Below are positions 24,513 to 50,723 of a DNA stretch of 64,000 nucleotides, piece by piece (position 1 is the first letter of the stretch; each line of letters starts with the position of its first letter). Position numbers and translations under genes: made by a program. A model generated the notes under the pieces. The model was given only the letters and a program-made list of their open reading frames with translations. It was not told where the DNA came from and did no database searches. Source of the stretch: Phoenix dactylifera (Eukaryota; Streptophyta; Magnoliopsida; Arecales; Arecaceae). The stretch spans positions 5,879,775 to 5,943,774 of the forward strand of contig NC_052409.1 in the NCBI RefSeq assembly GCF_009389715.1, read 5' to 3'.

Positions 24513-27500
24513 ATGGGGTTCTTCCGGAGGATCGCCGGTTTTCTTGGCCTCGCGAGGGACGAAGCAAACGGGGCCGCCGCCGCCGCCGCCGTTGCCGCCG
24601 GCGGCGACGGCGGCGAGGAGGAGGAGGAGAATAAGCGGACGGGGAAGAGCTTGCCGCGCGGCCGAGCCAAAGGGTTCAGGGTCCAGGTCCCCCTCACAGT
24701 CGAGAGGCCTAGCATAGGGCCCGTCCTCATTCCTTGCGGTCCCGGCGAAGGCGGAGTCCAGGTGCTTGCCCCTTCCCAACCTTTCTTTCTTTTGATTCAT
24801 GAGTTCTGGGTTTCTTGATGAATTCGGTGATGGGTTTATCAAGAATCGCGGTCTAATGGGTTTTGTTTTATATGATGTAAAGTTGGTTTTTTTTTGGATT
24901 TGTTCGGGCCTTTGAATTTGTATAGTTTAACCATAGTTTTTGTTAGTGGTTAGCAAGAAGAACGTGATGAATGGGTGATAAAAGGAGGCTAGATGTATGA
25001 TTTGGGGGCAGGTAAGCTTGTAACACGTGGAAGTGGTAAAGGAGACAGGACTGAACTTTTCCTAGGAATGATGTGTTTATATGAGTGAACTGGAATCTCC
25101 AGTATGTCAAAGCCTTGCAAAGATAAATTGCCAAGCGAACACATATCATAATGCTTATCTTTAACCTTCTGGATTGCAACAAGTGAACCAAGAATTGCAT
25201 GTAGGGATTGTGTTAAAACACCATCTTAATTGAATTCATTCTTTTTTTCCAAAGAATTTAAGATGAGAGGTTGAGGGTTATCCGAGACATGAGACAGGGG
25301 CTTGAATATATGGGCTCGATAATGTTACTGAGGTCTTCCAACACTATTTAATTCACAGCATTACTGTAAACTCTTTTACTAACTATTGTTGATTTAAACA
25401 TCAACAGGTTTGCCCTTAATTTTTTTGTGGATATTAGGAAGTGATGTTGCATGAGGAGTGAAGAGCTATTGGATCGCCAGGAATTACACTTTGGAGATTA
25501 TACATATAAATTGAAGGAAAACTGGATTGAAGAACCCTTCGTTTCATGAAGGAAGTTCTCTCCAAGAATTTCTTTTATTAATATGTCAAAAGCTACCATC
25601 ATACAATGTAGTAGAAGCATATATAGGACATGACCCTTAATCCTAATTTGGGACTTCAACCTAGTACAAAACTATACTAGAAATAGGACTTAGTAATAAG
25701 AAAATATGCTAGAATTATTCAACTACAAATATAAAAATCTAGCTAAAATTTGACTCCTTCTGTAATTGAAAATTTATAAGAGGCTCGGTCACAAACTTTT
25801 AGCTCGTGCAAAATCTTCGCCTATGAATCTGTTGCTCCTGAGAAGTTTGGTATGATCTAGCTGATCAAAGTACTTGTTGGTTGCACCTTGTGCTGCATCA
25901 AATTGTCTTCCTTATGAGAGTTGTATGTTCTTTTATTCTTAGGAACTGTATGTAAAGCAATTCAAATATTACAAAAGGTGGTGACAAATGGTTTTATTGC
26001 TTAGGCAATAAAATGGGATTATAGCTAAGACTCTAGATGCAATGTAAGGACTAGATGAATGTCAGGAACTCTAGAAGATAGTAACATTTATATTTATGGA
26101 ACAATATATTGCCATTTATGCAAAATAGTGGAGAATTTGAGATATCATGTTAGCAAATAATAGATTGGAAATGGTAACATGATGAGAGTTGTGATTGTTG
26201 ACTTTGTGGTGGTGCATTAGTGAATTTGATGACACTAAAAGTGGTTCCAACTTATCATAAATAGGTAATTTTTGTTACAACAAGGAGTAACATAATACAG
26301 TCATACAATGAGATATTTGTTGACATGATAACTAGTGCAGTTGTCTATAATATGTTAAGTCCCAAGAAATGAGACAAAAGGATTCCAAAGAACATAGACC
26401 TTGGAGTGAGAAAGTTGCATCATTCAACGGTAAGTTGTTGGAGAGAATCCACAATTATAACCATCAACTCTTGTCCCGACAATTTGACGTCAGTTTTGTT
26501 TATCCTTATTTGCCAATCAGCGTATCAACTAAAACCTCTGACACAACCTCAAACTTTCTGAATTATTTCTTGTAAATCCCTTCCCTGTTAAAGTTGGTGT
26601 TTACACATATCTTTCCAGGTCCTTTGACATAATTTAAGGACCTCTTAAGATTATTCTAATATATATTATGTGGGATTATTAATCACAAGTTTTTATAAAA
26701 AAATGTTCAGGGACTTAGGCCCTGTTTGGGAGAGCTTTTGGAGGGCCAGAAAGCACTTTCTGGCCCTCCAAAAGTACTTTTAGATAAAAAACTGTGTTTG
26801 GTAAATTTTGCAAAAAGCTGTTTCAGCTTTTGCAGGAAGCTGAAAACAGCTTTTGGGAGGAAGCTCCAATTTGGAGCTTTTGGGAGGAAGCTGTTTCAGC
26901 TTTTTCGGAAAGCTGTATTTTTGACAAAAATGCCCATATTAAAATAACATAAATACATAGTTTGTCCCTTTATAAACCTAAAAATCTACTGGAGCCAAGA
27001 ACCCTAGCCGTCAGACTTCCTTCCGTAAGAAAAGGTATTTTTCTTTTCAATTTTTGTATGCATCTCTTGAACCACATTTTAGAAGAAAAAAATTTTAATC
27101 TTTTTCCATACCTTCCAAAATCAATCTATTGTTTTTTTTTTTATCATCAACCTCGCGGCCCACGCTGAGGTCCTCCTCGAGCGTGGACTACGAAGAAGAG
27201 CCCCTGGACCGCGGAAAATTATTTTATGAAAAATTATAAAAAATTATTATGGAAAATTATTTTATACTAATAATTATAATATTTTATATCTTTATTTTTA
27301 TATTATACTATAAATATAATATCATATTATATTATATCATAATACATTAATATGTTATGTTAAATAATTTAATATTATGTTATATTATGAAAAATTAATT
27401 TATAATAATAATTATAATATTTTATACCTTTATTATTATATTATACTATAAATATTGTATTATATTACATTACATTATAATACATTAATATGTTATTTTA

Positions 27501-28809
27501 AATAATTTAATATTATGTTATATTATGGAAAATTAATTTATAATAATAATTATAATATTTTATACCTTTATTATTGTATTATATTATAAATATTGTATTA
27601 TATTACATTACATTATAATACATTAATATGTTATTTTAAATAATTTAATATTATGTTATATTATAAGAAATTAATTTACTAATAATTATAATATTTTATA
27701 CTTTTATTGTTGTATTATACTATAAATATAATATATATTACATTATATCATAATACATTAATATGTTATGTTAAATAATTTAATATTATGCTATATTACC
27801 AAATATTAATTTACTCTAATAATTATATTACTATTATGCTATATTAACATAATATTATTTTATATTACAGTAATATTATACTATATCGTATATTTATATA
27901 TTAATTTATGTTATGTTTTATTATGTTCTGTTGTATAATACTATGCAATGTCCTTTATGGTAATTTTGTCATACAAAAGTACTTTCTCAGTTTGTTTACC
28001 AAACACAAAACAAAGTACCACAGCACTTTACGAATGTAGTTACCAAACAGCAAACAACTTTTTTATAACAGCTCTACTTCAGACAGCTCTACTTCCAACA
28101 GCTCTACTTCCAACAGCTCTACCGCCAACAGCTCCCCCAAACAGGGCCTTAAGCCAAGCTGCACACTTATAAAACAGATGCTATAAAAGATTGTGAATGC
28201 TATTAACTGATGTCATCCATGCAGCTTTAAGAGGTACACTTTGGTTAAGGTTAGAATTTTCTTTTTTTTTAAAAGGCAGTCATTGGGAGACTGGGGAGAG
28301 GAGGGGAGGACGAGGGGAAGCACTATATATTACTATGAGGTAAGGATGATATAATTTTGGTGAAATATGACAAGTAAAGGTCATGTGCAGGACTTTCTTA
28401 GCCAGGAGTTGGAGCCTAATTGTAGCAGACCTAGAGTAGTTCTGAAATCCGATCAAGAAAGCACTTTGACAGTAAAGATTAACGAAATGCTGTTAGTATC
28501 ATTGCAGAATATTATAGATTGTTGATATTTTGTTAATGCCATAGAGCTGCTGAGCAATAAGAAATGAAGAGACAAAAACATGAACATATGCCAAGAAGGG
28601 TAGTTAAAATGAAGAAGCAAATTTATGTAATGTTTGTTTTCATCAAATATCATGCTTTCCCTTTTCTAACAGAAACTTTAAAAAGAACAGAAAAGTTTGC
28701 ATACATACTTTATGGAAGGTTTGCTGTACATGAGGAGATTTTATGCCAAAAATTCATAATAGAAAAGAAACCTGGAAGAAATGTCATGTGAGAGTATGTT
28801 GTGGAGACT

Positions 28810-41724: not shown

Positions 41725-44700
41725 TCAGTTATTAGGCTTGTGCTCAGTGCTTGGTGAAGCCTGTTAAAGAGAGTGCAAAAGAAAACATTAAGATTTGCAG
41801 TCCTTTGTTAACTTCCTCAAATACATAATTATGTGAAAGCATCAAATATGAGACATGGCAAATGGCAGTTTTGATAACTTGAACAGTCCAAGATTGAAAT
41901 AGAAAAAGGCACACCAACAGACACAATGGAATAATGCAAGAGAATAATCAGGAATTCTAATGGGTGCTGTTTATAAAACAAAAAGCTATTTCAAGGAGGA
42001 CTAACCCCAACTGATGTCACAAAATTGCAGACAGCGCACTTCACGGATCCTGCTCCATATTGGTACATGAGCAGCATTTGGCAGTTCCCACAATTGACAT
42101 GTGCTACCTGATTTGCTGCCGCCAATTATTTGAAGTTCATTCAATATATATGTAGGAATCCCACATTCATCATTAGCTTATTTCCATATTTGAACACAGT
42201 AAGAACATCAGCAAAGCCTAACATTTTCATATCATATATTGAAATTCTTATTTTTACTATGTGCTTGCCGATCAGAAAATTCTATATATGTTTCCTGTTT
42301 TCTGAATCTTTTGCTTACATTTAAACAGTACTAAGAAGATAAGTAGGTACCAGCCATACAAAATACCTCGAAGCTTTGTGGGAAGCTTGTCTAGCCTTTT
42401 ACTAAAAGTTACCCTTGTCTGTTGCATAAAATTTCAGGAGGTCTGCTTCGACGGGATCCAGTCTACTGTTTCCTGTTCATGTGGGTTTTGCTCTCTAAAT
42501 GGGTCTTCAAGCAGGCCATAAGTTCTGAGTTTGTTGGATGCTTTAACATTGTAATTTTTGAAATCAATATGGCTTGTCGATGTAATTGATGCAGCAGTAA
42601 TTGATGAGGATATACGATACCAGTTAAGCACACTGACCATTAACTTGCGTTTTGTGGTTGCACAATCACTCTGGCATGCCTCGTGTAGTATTTTAATAAG
42701 TTAAAAGCACATAGAGATCCATGAATCAGAGTATGTTTCCTTGTTTGGAAAAAATAATTATTATGCATATGTAGAGACTGCCAACATTTCATAACCAAAC
42801 ATAACACTCATAATTGAAGGAAATATTCCAAGATTACTACCCCATTCATGAACAGGAGTACTATCTAAAACATTTGTACTATGCAAAGATCATGTTTCTT
42901 TATGATATAGAAAGGTTTTAAGGTCTCTAACTTCTACCGGGAAAAACTGGGTACCACATATAGTGGCTGTAGCACCATTGCTGTCAAAAATTGTTCAAAT
43001 TTCAAGACCATTTCTTGTTCATCAAAATGAGTCTGCGCCTATCCATGTCCATTGTTGGCTACATGAACATATTCTATCATGAAATAAGAGTTGCATCTTT
43101 CTAAATAGCATGGCCAATTCTTAACTAGATAAAAGAAACAAGCTTCTAGCTGTACTTCTATACCTCCTCTCTAGTAAGTTAGATTAGCCCCGAATATTGG
43201 AGTCAGCACAATTTCCTTACCTTCTAAAGCCAGGTTGATGGTGTGACAACAAGAGCATTGCACACTAGTTGCTCCACGTATGTACATCAGAAGAGTGTGA
43301 CATCCTCCGCAGACTAACCGAGCCATCTCTGTTCCTGTTGCAAACTCAAAAAGTGGTGACAATTATGTCTGAGAACTGACATCAAAAAATGTTGAGACCA
43401 GAGAGTCAGAGGCCATTCTCAAAAACTGTTTTTAAGTTGATTGCTATTATGGATTTGCCCACCTAATGATGTAATCCTGTTTGAATCCAATGGCACACAT
43501 ATAGTCTGTTTTAGATGCCACAAGGGGCATGTGCCATATTAATTCATAAAACATTTCTTATGCTAGTATCAATTATTGAAATTGGGGTTAGAATCATCAT
43601 ATAAATGCATATATTGTCAACACTAGAATTGGAAGGGTTTCATGACCATTCTTATCAGCTCAATACAAACCAGAAATCATTTTTTAACACCACTTCCAGT
43701 CATTGAATGAATATTTTCTTCTTTCCCTAAATATTATTCAAGGAAAATGAAATAGGTAAATAAGTGCCTATGTCTTATTGGCAATAGACAAAATTTGACT
43801 GGTGCCAAAGGGATTACAATGTACAATGCAAGTATATATACTGAAATTATATATCTGCAATCTGCATTAACTAGGTTATGTCCTCCAAATAAATAACTTG
43901 GTAGCCGCACACAATGCAAATCACACAATAACATAATTAGAAGTAAGAGAAACTTTGAAGGGATTTGAAAAAGTCACATCATCTCTAATGGAAAAATGAG
44001 GAATATAACTGGTGAATTAAGAAAATAATACCAGGTGGAGGTGCGGCTGTCACTGCATTGCAAATGGCGCAGCATATGGATGTTGCCCCTAGCGGATAGA
44101 GAAGGAGATTTCGACAACCAGAACAAACAAGTTGGTTTTGTCCACCTGAGAATCAAATAGAGTATCATTGACGATATACCCAAAGTTGGTGATGTAGCAC
44201 TGGTAGAAAAGAGGAGATTAAATATATGGACAACCCTTATGTGAATACAATCAATCCATGCATTCAGCATTATTGGCATGTGAATCGACACGCCATTTAG
44301 CTATCGAGTTTACAGTAACATGTTGTTGCTATGTGAATAAGAGAAGGAAACCAGCTCGTGCCTCTGATAAGAATAAAAGAATCAGATAAGGATTCATGAA
44401 GCTGAATGCAAAATGACTAGGATAATGCTTTCTGACTATGCCCATCATTGTGTTAAAAGCAAAATGATCCACAAGCTTATGTGTCACCAACTTAACTCCT
44501 TCTAAAAGGAGATGCACACACTGCAACAAAGACTTCCTTAAAAAAAAGGTGGGTACGAGAAAGAAAAGACTACAACAAAGTTCACAGAGTTTATAACTAT
44601 ACCGGCAAAGTTAGAGCAGCACATCGATTAGCTTTTTGGCTGTTTAACTACATTACAATGTCATTTTCAGGAGTGCAGGTCATTAGATTCAAAATAAATT

Positions 44701-46730: not shown

Positions 46731-48954
46731 CATCTCATATTGTGTAACTAGAGTTAGAGTTTATTCCTTTGTAATTTATTGTATAAAAGCATAAATTACT
46801 TTAACTCTTTAATAACCAGATATACATGCATGCTACTTATATGTTTGTTTAGCTATATTTATGCTACTTATGTGACCGGACTCTCAATTCACTTTTCAAT
46901 TGCAACAATTTATTTAGTAAATGTATTGCATCAAAAAAGATTGTTGCTGCAAAGTTTGACATCAACAAGACAATGGAGAGCTGAGTTATGTCAGAGTATT
47001 ATATGCGACAAATTCCTATACTCGTGGCGGCATGTAATTCAGTAATTCTAACAAGGAAGGCTATTCAAGCAAGTTCTTTTAATTGGCTGAAAGTTGATGG
47101 AAATCATGTATATGAACTTATTGAAACCTCCTAATTTTACTGATGTTAGCTGGCTGTGACAATGCAAGAACCGAGGTTACAACAATTGATTTGTATCTTT
47201 TTATGAGTCACTAATAGCACAATTTTATATACTTAAATTGAGTGTTAAATCACAATTCTCTTTTACATGCGCAAAATTAATTTAAGATGGTGAAACTTCT
47301 ACCTTGGTGGAACATGTTGACATTGTGAATGAATGCCAAAAATATGTAAGGGTAATTTCTATTACACATTTTTGCTAAGGTAATTGTGAGCCCTCCTTGT
47401 TTTCTCAAAAAGAATTGTCATCCCTCCTAAATCTTTTCAGATTTTTTTTTTTAGTTTCTTAAATTCCGGAGGAAACCTACTAGAGATGGTAAGCAAATGG
47501 GAAATGGAAATGATATTTTGATGGCGACAAGTGAGAGACAAAGAAATGGGTGGTAGTCAATGGTCAAGTCACTTCTCCATGGATGCCCAGGATCTTGAAT
47601 ACTGGCAGAAGATCATTGCTTTATTTTTGCACCACCACACACATCCTTATCCCCTCCTGGATTTTGTTGGCAAGGGCATAAGCTAGATTTCATAGCCTAT
47701 GAAGCTTGGATAGCTGTAGAACTTGCGAAGAACGCTACGTACGCCTGAAAAGTGAACCCCAAAGGAAGTAGCTTGCAGAAAAGCATGCAGAAAGGCATCA
47801 CGAAGGCAAGAATGGTGCAGTCCAAGAACGAGAGATAACAGTGGCACTTGATGTTTGCTCAGGTTACTGTTGGTTTGATTTGCAAAGAGAGGAAAAACAA
47901 GGGTTTGTGAACATAATCCCTCAATAAATAGTAATAGCTACAAACATGGAGGATCAGGCCTTGTTAGTGTAGAATAACTTTCCTGCCCATAGGCAATGCA
48001 TGGTGTGGATAAGGCAGCCATGGATTCCCAATTCTAATTTAGCACCTACAGCAATGAGGGCAATCTTGAAATGGAGAGAAAAGTGCAGTTCTAACTACTT
48101 CCATTCAGTGAGTGATATCTTCTGTTGATAAAGCAAATAATGTTGGAAAGAGACATCCTTGTTGCTTTTTAAGCACTAGTTCCAACTTAGGTCCTTCTCA
48201 GTGCAAGTCAAGTTTATTGGCGCATCCTAAGAAAAATTCATGTTGGAGATCATGATTAGATTTTATACCGTTCCCTATCTTATTCTTATCTTGATTATAT
48301 GGCTTAAGATTCTCAAAAATATAGCAGATGATTTGGCAAACTTAAAAGTGTTCATTTAAAAGCAAGATAAAGTATAGTAATTCCTTCGATGAAAAACCGA
48401 GATGAGGTGTACACGACGTCTTGGTTGCGTCATACGCCAAGATATACATGAAATCATCCTCCGCATTCATCATTCCTTTTAAGAATTCAATCTTCATATA
48501 GAAAAGTGCAAAAATAATCAAGTTATGAAAAAGATGGCAAGAGAATTTGAAGGCAACCCTTCTTCCACATCTCCTCACACACACAATTTTGGGAGTCACT
48601 CAGCTGCCTCATCCTTTTTAATGGAACAGCCGCCTCGTCTAAAATAGAATACAATTTTCTAAGCTGTATAAATCATATATCTTCAATTAGCTTACAATAT
48701 AATTACATCCACATGAGAACTAGTTTCATTCCTTGAAATCTCCTTAGGTTGTTGCCTATCCGACATTACTTGTGCACCACAGCTATTTGTCTTGTTAGAA
48801 CTCGGATTATTAGCTCATGATATTGTATATTATCTTACACAAGAAGTGCAAGTTGGCAAGTAGAACTTTGACTAAAGCCGTATGTGAGATATTTACTTTT
48901 TTATTTTCAATTTAAGTTGTTTTTCTTATGTCCATGGCTGCAAAGTAATACGAG
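46731..48954. other. Intergenic AT-rich region
   Basis: No gene, terminal repeat or RNA gene that I can recognise. Confidence 0.5.
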
Positions 48955-50474
48955 TTATTTTTGCATGTATACCCTTCTAAATATATGAAATTAAATGAAT
49001 GCTCTTCTAAAGTTGTTATTTACATGTACATCCTTATAAAATACTTGTTTTGCATATATATCTTTTTTTTTTCTTTTTTTTCTTTTACATAAATGGCCAT
49101 ATGATCTAATGTAGTTAAAAAAATAAATGGTTTAAAACTAAAATACCCTTATGGATAGGCATGCAAAAAAAAAATATATTAGAGTATACATGCAAATAGC
49201 AACTTTGTGAGGGTATGCATATAATTTCGCATAGTTAGAAGGGTATAAACTCAATTCACATTGTCAATTATTTTTGTTTAAGATCTTAACTCAATCAAGT
49301 TGGAATATTATGTGATCATTTTAGTAATGCTATTCTTCATTTAGTTTTGATATAATTATTACTATTAAGTTAATGATATATATATTTATTATTTTTAAAA
49401 TTAAAATATATTAAATTTAAAATAATTATGGATGCTTAGATCGGTAAAATATTTTCAGTAATTTATAAATATTGAGTTATTGTTTGTTTGTTGAGGTTAG
49501 AATTTTATAAATGCATCATGATTTATTCTATAAAAACTAATATTAACATAGATTCATGCGACATGATAATGTTGATCTTTTTTTTTCACTCTCTTCAATT
49601 AAGAATAGCTAAATTATCTTCACTAGAATTAAACTTCTTTCACTTGACCATGTACTCCAAATTAAATATAATTCAATCACAAGCTTTGGTGTATATGCTC
49701 AAATGACATAAGCTAATTCTAATGAAAATAATTCAGTCATTTTTAATTAAGAAGGATGACAAAAAAATAAATATTATCATGCCGAATAATCCCATGGTAA
49801 TATTAATTCTTATGGAAGAAATCAGATGCCTTTGTGAAATTCTCGTCTCAACAAATGAACAACTCACCACTTATAAATCACTAAAAACCATTTCACTGAT
49901 CTAAATATCCATAATTAATTTAAATTCAATATACTTTAATATCCTAAAAATAATAAGAAATGTATAGATGTCATAGACTGAACAATGACAATTATATCGA
50001 AATCAAATGAAAGAATAGAATTACTAAAATGGTTATCCGTTATTCTAACTTGACCAAGTTAAGATCTTAAATAGAGAAAAAATGACTATATTATTTGTGT
50101 TTTGGTTTGTCGAGTCAACTGAATCATGAACAATATGGCAAGTCTCAGCCAAGTTTTCATCATTTTTTAATATATTTTTTTGAGTATATAGCATCTAAAT
50201 ATATGAAATTACATTAATACCCTTGCAACTTTGTTATTTGTATATATACGCTTATAATTTTTTTTGCATGTCTATCTATAAAAATATTTTAGTTATTTTA
50301 ATTTTATACCATTTATTTTTTAATAGCATTAGATGATATAGATACATATGCCAAAAAAAAAAAGAAAAGAATAGTATACATGCAAAATAAATATTTCATA
50401 AAGATATATGTGTAAATAGCAGCTTTATAAGGTGTTCATGTAATTTTGTGTATTTAAAAAGATACTCATACAAA
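48955..50474. repeat. Giant imperfect palindrome (foldback), about 1.5 kb
   Basis: The left arm 48955-49658 and the right arm 49688-50474 are inverted copies around a loop of about 29 nt (49659-49687). Matching blocks, left versus reverse complement of right: CACTTGACCATGTAC / CATTTGAGCATATAC next to the loop, TTTAAGATCTTAACT near 49278-49292 / 50060-50075, and AAATATATGAAATTA / AAATACACAAAATTA at the outer ends. The right arm has an extra segment of about 100 bp (near 50080-50165). The outer ~310 bp of each arm (48955-49262 and 50163-50474) is itself a foldback with ~100-bp arms. By eye the arms are roughly three-quarters identical. No transposase is seen. Confidence 0.85.
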
Positions 50475-50723
50475 CAAATCTAATATTATGGCAAGCCAAT
50501 TTATGACAATATCCAAAATGAGTGGCCTATGTTAGATGCCAAAGGCGGACAGAGTACATTCACAGTAATATCTAAAGCTATCTTCATCCAAATAAATAAC
50601 ATATATTCTCCTATAACCAGACAATCACATTGAAAAACATTTTGATGGCTAATTCTTAATCTATAATCAAAACGTTTATTCTATAAACGTTTTGTGAAGT
50701 CTCTAATCACAACGAGTGTTGCG

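What the first reader, a model, noticed from the sequence alone, without database searches (positions are those of the whole stretch)
48955..50474. 1.5-kb imperfect palindrome with a loop of only about 29 nt
Almost the whole block is two inverted arms of 704 and about 787 nt, with the outer parts themselves foldback repeats (a hairpin within a hairpin). If transcribed, it would give one long dsRNA hairpin, a natural source of small interfering RNAs or a young MIRNA-like locus. The arms have diverged to roughly 75% by eye, so the inversion is old, yet the fold is kept along its length. No transposase and no clear target duplication were seen, so it is not an obvious known transposon class.
Basis: seen in the sequence. 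Interest (0 to 1): 0.7.

Follow-up and report, generated by a model that had tools for sequence, protein, structure and literature searches.

The report
Old foldback jumping gene, date palm
The 1.5-kb hairpin-like stretch is a worn copy of a high-copy "foldback" DNA transposon, almost certainly in date palm, for which no protein-coding content was seen; it belongs to a known kind of element, and no sign was found that its hairpin shape is kept by selection.

Summary
In detail: 48954-50480 is a near-complete inverted repeat (arms 720 and 803 nt, 78.5% identity over 697 aligned columns plus 129 gap columns), far beyond chance (fold z about -46). It is one copy of a dispersed repeat family in a 773-Mb genome whose contig sizes match date palm BC4. 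Copies have the order F-S-I-I'-S'-F', or shorter, and 9-bp target site duplications: 17 of 25 testable copies match at 8 or 9 of 9, against 4.3% of 600 mismatched pairs, the excess peaking at 9 bp. F, the "hairpin within a hairpin", is a two-way array of a motif spaced by ~30 nt. This fits a non-autonomous Mutator-type foldback transposon; "not an obvious transposon class" is not upheld. Eight of ten dimers have one arm in each of two clades, so the arms had begun to differ before the copies spread. Arms of one element are not clearly more alike than arms of different elements, so the lasting fold needs no selection to explain it. Small-RNA output could not be tested. No transposase-bearing relative was found in partial lists. 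New family, known kind.

The parts
48954..50480 (.). Whole element: non-autonomous Mutator-type foldback transposon (F - I - I' - S' - F'; left S missing); the right edge is uncertain by about a base
48945..48953 (.). Left candidate target site duplication, degraded
   Evidence: 6 of 9 with the right flank, not significant alone
50480..50488 (.). Right candidate target site duplication, degraded
48954..49251 (+). F: outer ~300-nt TIR block, itself a foldback, with a ~30-nt-spaced motif in both directions
49252..49674 (+). I: inner left arm, directly after F because the left S is missing in this copy
49661..49685 (.). Centre: innermost predicted pair, 23-nt loop
49678..50090 (-). I': inner right arm
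50091..50179 (-). S': ~90-nt spacer; a left partner is present in L009 and other copies
50180..50480 (-). F': outer right TIR block, foldback

Best explanation
The block is an old, decayed copy of a non-autonomous DNA transposon family of the Mutator superfamily with foldback architecture. Shown: (1) it belongs to a dispersed repeat family; (2) copies carry 9-bp target site duplications at the outer ends of F; (3) this copy is almost wholly two long terminal inverted repeats, F-S-I, meeting at a short loop; (4) F carries a ~30-nt-spaced motif array pointing both ways; (5) the two arms form separate lineages in 8 of 10 dimers; (6) 23 of the 40 loci examined are a shorter form, F-S-I-F', 21 of them with the same breakpoint in I. 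Inferred: a Mutator-type transposase supplied in trans bound the F motifs and moved the element by cut and paste; the palindrome arose by loss of the middle of a longer element or by inverted duplication and was then copied as a unit; the short form is a deletion derivative that amplified in its own right. The hairpin is then a by-product of two TIRs abutting. A transcript of it could be diced into small RNAs, but nothing here shows transcription or upkeep for that purpose.
For: 203 matches from 40 scored of 2,405 candidate places. Architecture of 40 loci (39 fetched plus the window): 10 dimers, 23 short forms (21 leave I at position 379-380), 1 other deletion, 6 lacking one end. 9-bp TSD at 8/9 or better in 17 of 25 testable copies against 4.3% of 600 mismatched pairs, excess greatest at 9; earlier test on 12 of 21 copies: 6 of 12 against 3.8% of 132. 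At the inner edge of F the same test is not clearly above control: 3 of 20 against 5.0%, or 3 of 17 distinct flanks against 7.0%, mean z 0.4. A 27-nt terminus with up to 3 mismatches: 1,987 places against 0 for the reversed pattern. Motif array in F. Arm tree. At least 150 PF10551 domains in the genome. Precedents: PMC4486113, PMC3169594, PMC4079207 (passages) and PMC3310237 (abstract and passages).
Against: No element with these ends and a transposase inside was found: none of 54 element places and none of 100 listed terminus places is within 15 kb of the 150 listed PF10551 matches; the lists are partial (150 of 452 candidates scored, 100 of 1,987 places listed), and some PF10551 matches may be domesticated FAR1-type genes (recalled). 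[quoted passage not shown] The window copy's own TSD is only 6 of 9, and 8 of 25 copies fall below 8 of 9. L014 and L015 lie outside the two arm clades, and 16 of 28 inner branches of the tree are unresolved. Flanks are 75% A+T, so several TSDs are low-complexity; the mismatched-pair control allows for this on average.
Confidence: 0.9

Rival explanations
1. A selected hairpin-RNA or MIRNA-like locus: the inverted repeat is transcribed and diced, and the pairing is maintained because the small RNAs are useful.
For: Strong predicted fold with helices of up to 24 uninterrupted pairs. In maize 62.82% of annotated Mutator elements carry miRNA-like hairpins, biased to the TIRs (PMC10760457, passages).
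Against: It is one of a dispersed family. No clear excess of own-arm identity: 0.765 against 0.760, 8.3% of 5,040 re-pairings as good. No Rfam gathering hit.
Confidence: 0.05
2. A host segment duplicated in inverted orientation at this place by local rearrangement, not transposition.
For: At this locus alone the TSD is weak.
Against: The same inverted join with different flanks in other copies, shared ends and 9-bp TSDs.
Confidence: 0.01
3. A composite origin, compatible with the main reading: two F-type MITEs came to flank a once unrelated S-I-I'-S' segment and now move it, like the two ends of a composite transposon.
For: F's inner end is an inverted copy of its outer end. F-like foldbacks without detectable S or I exist (L069-L073).
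Against: All 20 F places fetched (of 40 scored; 17 with distinct flanks) had I or S-I beside them. TSDs of the solo forms do not beat control: 8, 8, 8 and 9 of 9 against 5 of 12 mismatched pairs at 8 or more.
Confidence: 0.2

Closest known systems
MuTAnT, Medicago truncatula (PMC4486113, passages read)
   Same: Mutator-like; TIRs built of modules forming a foldback; four similar segments in the self dot-plot; mostly non-autonomous copies
   Different: 90% of MuTAnTs are 200-300 bp and they target TA microsatellites; here about 1.0-1.7 kb. MuTAnT has a putative autonomous relative, none found here
FARE, Arabidopsis (paper not held; known here only as cited in PMC4486113 and PMC3169594)
   Same: Long palindromic repeats at both ends, now classed with MULEs
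   Different: Sequences not compared; FARE is said to contain a MULE-type transposase
MULEs with multiple long TIRs in plants (PMC3310237, abstract and passages read)
   Same: Repeated TIR sequence at each end, 9-11-bp TSD, similar size (a minor maximum at 1.3-1.4 kb in tomato)
   Different: Those are mostly tandem TIRs around an internal region; here F is a two-way motif array and the arms meet with almost no middle
Tetris and DAIBAM, Drosophila virilis group (PMC4079207, passages read)
   Same: Non-autonomous foldback, 8-10-bp TSDs, ends shared with a small MITE
   Different: Animal element with few structurally complete copies, linked to satellite DNA
Tm1, root-knot nematodes (PMC3169594, passages read)
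   Same: Mutator/foldback family, composite TIRs with short internal repeats, mostly 9-bp TSDs, MITE-like members
   Different: Has one transposase-encoding member; TIRs of one element average 93% identity, far younger than here

Membership tests
Mutator superfamily (MULE), non-autonomous | 9-11-bp target site duplication | tested here: met
   17 of 25 copies at 8/9 or better against 4.3% of 600 control pairs, excess greatest at 9 bp; criterion from PMC3310237 passages
Mutator superfamily (MULE), non-autonomous | Long TIRs with shared ends | tested here: met
   In the dimers the TIR is the whole arm; terminus G(G/A)TTTTTTTGCATG
Mutator superfamily (MULE), non-autonomous | Related autonomous element with a MULE transposase | tested here: inconclusive
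   At least 150 PF10551 matches in the genome, none within 15 kb of the listed copies; lists partial
Foldback element | Very long TIRs made of short repeated motifs, little or no middle | tested here: met
   Arms 720 and 803 nt, 23-nt predicted loop; ~30-nt-spaced motif at about 9, 39, 68, 98, 130 forward and 200, 230, 260 reverse in the better-kept of 10 F copies looked at, fewer in others
MIRNA or hairpin-siRNA locus | Precise or phased 21-24-nt small RNAs from the arms | not testable with these tools
   No read data available
MIRNA or hairpin-siRNA locus | Pairing conserved beyond common descent | tested here: not met
   Own arms not clearly more alike than arms of different elements; a weak effect is not excluded

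The most novel reading that the evidence does not exclude
Transcribed dimer copies (F-S-I-I'-S'-F') act in trans as natural inverted-repeat silencers of the shorter form and its relatives, as Mu killer does for Mutator in maize (mechanism recalled; a 2003 title seen in the reference list of PMC10760457). The palindromic form would then be a regulator of its own family.
Probability: 0.07. Interest if true: 0.55.

Novelty: new member of a known kind. Interest (0 to 1): 0.2.

Why it matters
It explains a striking hairpin as transposon anatomy and gives date palm a foldback family with clear modules, ends and target duplications. Comparing an element's own arms with arms of other elements is a simple general test of whether a repeat hairpin is maintained or merely inherited.

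Tried and rejected
Rfam and tRNA scans: nothing. Coding content: only frames of 76 and 65 aa inside the block at a 55-aa threshold; these two were not searched against protein families. Transposase-bearing partner: not found in partial lists. Opposite-strand S-I matches kilobases apart: none seen by eye among 54 matches from 40 scored of 310 candidates. F as a separate MITE: 20 F places fetched of 40 scored, all with I or S-I beside them. The TSD test at F's inner edge gives 3 of 20 at 8/9 or better against 5.0%, or 3 of 17 distinct flanks against 7.0%; at 10 bp 2 of 17 against 1.1%, mean z 1.2, so not clearly above control but not a perfect zero. F-like foldbacks without S or I exist (5 fetched), their TSDs do not beat control. 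Loops of the longer-loop dimers L014 and L015 share only a 29-nt match. Literature: the listings (titles and abstract starts) showed no paper on this family in date palm; a 207-genome MITE paper, PMC12550479, does not name Phoenix in its main text; the date palm genome paper, PMC6794320, was seen in passages only and does not use the word Mutator.

Rows dropped: the TSD test used 25 of 40 loci; 15 lack an outer end (L012, L016, L017, L019, L020, L022, L023, L025, L026, L029, L041, L042, L043, L045, L047). L015 and L044, whose F starts late, were kept and score 3 and 5 of 9. One search used 12 of 21 copies. The matched arm test used 7 dimers; L014 and L015 (unresolved in the tree) and L017 (near-copy of L016) were left out, and left and right were assigned from the tree. 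One search left out L070 (right end unclear).

Full report
What is there. The block is real. Self-BLASTN aligns 49247-50102 with its own reverse complement (74.5%, E 6e-156) and the outer blocks 48946-49254 and 50488-50180 with each other (about 73.7%). Family boundaries put the element at 48954-50480, with arms of 720 and 803 nt, 78.5% identity over 697 aligned columns, 129 gap columns and a 23-nt predicted loop. The predicted fold lies about 46 standard deviations below 15 dinucleotide shuffles.

Where it lies. The window is G000:C18:5879775-5943774 in a genome of 773,078,369 bases and 2,391 contigs. Contigs C1 (40.81 Mb) and C18 (9.81 Mb) agree with linkage groups 1 (40.8 Mb) and 18 (9.8 Mb) of the 772.3-Mb date palm BC4 assembly (PMC6794320, passages), so the source is very probably Phoenix dactylifera LG18. 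That is an inference. Frames with LSD1 zinc fingers lie at 43174-43362 and 43988-44152 on the minus strand, about 5 kb away.

A repeat family. A search with the block gave 203 matches from 40 scored of 2,405 candidate places. F alone had 2,664 candidates (40 scored), S-I 310 (40 scored). A 27-nt terminus with up to 3 mismatches occurs at 1,987 places, against none for the reversed pattern. With two ends per element this suggests several hundred to about a thousand elements; that is an inference, and the terminus is shared with related F-like foldbacks.

Anatomy. Profiles of three modules (F about 300 nt, S about 90, I about 420), laid on 40 loci (39 fetched plus the window), give 10 dimers F-S-I-I'-S'-F' (window, L009-L017; some with pieces missing), 23 short forms F-S-I-F' of which 21 leave I at position 379-380, one other deletion (L028) and six loci lacking one end. 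The 40 were picked by likeness to the window copy, so the proportions are not genome-wide. The window copy lacks the left S; L013 has a different deletion on the right. Ten F copies were scanned for the motif TGCATGTATACCCT with up to 4 mismatches: the better-kept ones have it at about 9, 39, 68, 98 and 130 in one direction and 200, 230 and 260 in the other, while others, including L011 and the window's two, keep fewer. That is the "hairpin within a hairpin".

Transposition. Alignment of 30 ends shows a sharp boundary at G(G/A)TTTTTTTGCATGTATACCC. Of 25 copies with both ends, 17 have 9-bp flanking repeats matching at 8 or 9 positions, against 4.3% of 600 mismatched flank pairs; the excess is greatest at 9 bp and falls on either side. 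Clear cases are TTCATCCTT (L009), TATATTATA (L028), AATAATCAT (L040) and TTGTTTTTA (L034). The window copy scores 6 of 9, which fits its age but is no evidence alone. At the inner edge of F the test is not clearly above control. A 9-11-bp duplication and long TIRs are the marks of Mutator-like elements (PMC3310237, passages). Most foldbacks have been placed in that superfamily, with exceptions such as Galileo (PMC4079207, passages).

Is the fold maintained? In a tree of 31 inner arms, eight of ten dimers have one arm in each of two supported clades (98/96 and 95/95); L014 and L015 are outside both, L016 and L017 are near-copies, and 16 of 28 inner branches are unresolved. So a slightly diverged palindrome existed before these copies spread, and most divergence came later (median end branch 0.11 changes per site). 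Arms of one element are 77.0% identical on average (10 pairs), arms of different dimers 77.4% (180 pairs). In the matched left-right test on 7 dimers the values are 0.765 (own) and 0.760 (other, 42 pairs), and 8.3% of the 5,040 pairings, the true one included, do as well. Selection on pairing, or conversion between arms, should raise the own value; a weak effect cannot be excluded. Six of the 11 non-dimer rows form one supported clade inside one arm's clade, as expected of a deletion derivative; the other five lie elsewhere, and most of those are incomplete loci.

Partner. The genome has at least 150 PF10551 matches (150 of 452 candidates scored), so a source in trans is possible. None lies within 15 kb of 54 element places or of the 100 listed terminus places. 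The partner is inferred, not found.

Verdict. An old copy of a non-autonomous Mutator-type foldback transposon family that I did not find described in the listings of eight literature searches. The kind is known and the interest modest. The small-RNA idea remains open, as for any transposon with long inverted repeats, but nothing here singles out this locus.

Noticed in passing
G000 C134:495745-631845, C5:15478331-15528111, C876:44154-70957: F copies recur on one strand at 24-52 kb steps on C134, 24-25 kb on C5 and 26.5 kb on C876, as if carried in a large tandem segmental duplication.
   Followed up: no
G000, PF10551 matches: Many matches share the same score and a 394-aa open frame, which suggests a recently amplified MULE in this genome.
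   Followed up: no
L070:636-2056: A tandem repeat of about 365 bp, 90-95% alike between copies, begins where an F-like foldback ends.
   Followed up: no
L069-L073: F-like foldbacks of about 270-450 bp without detectable S or I, with variant ends; related MITE-like families.
   Followed up: partly
window 27245-27827: Tandem array of a 138-bp AT-rich unit, 4.2 copies, 91% matches.
   Followed up: no
window 43174-44152 (-): Frames of a plant LSD1-type zinc-finger gene about 5 kb from the element.
   Followed up: no
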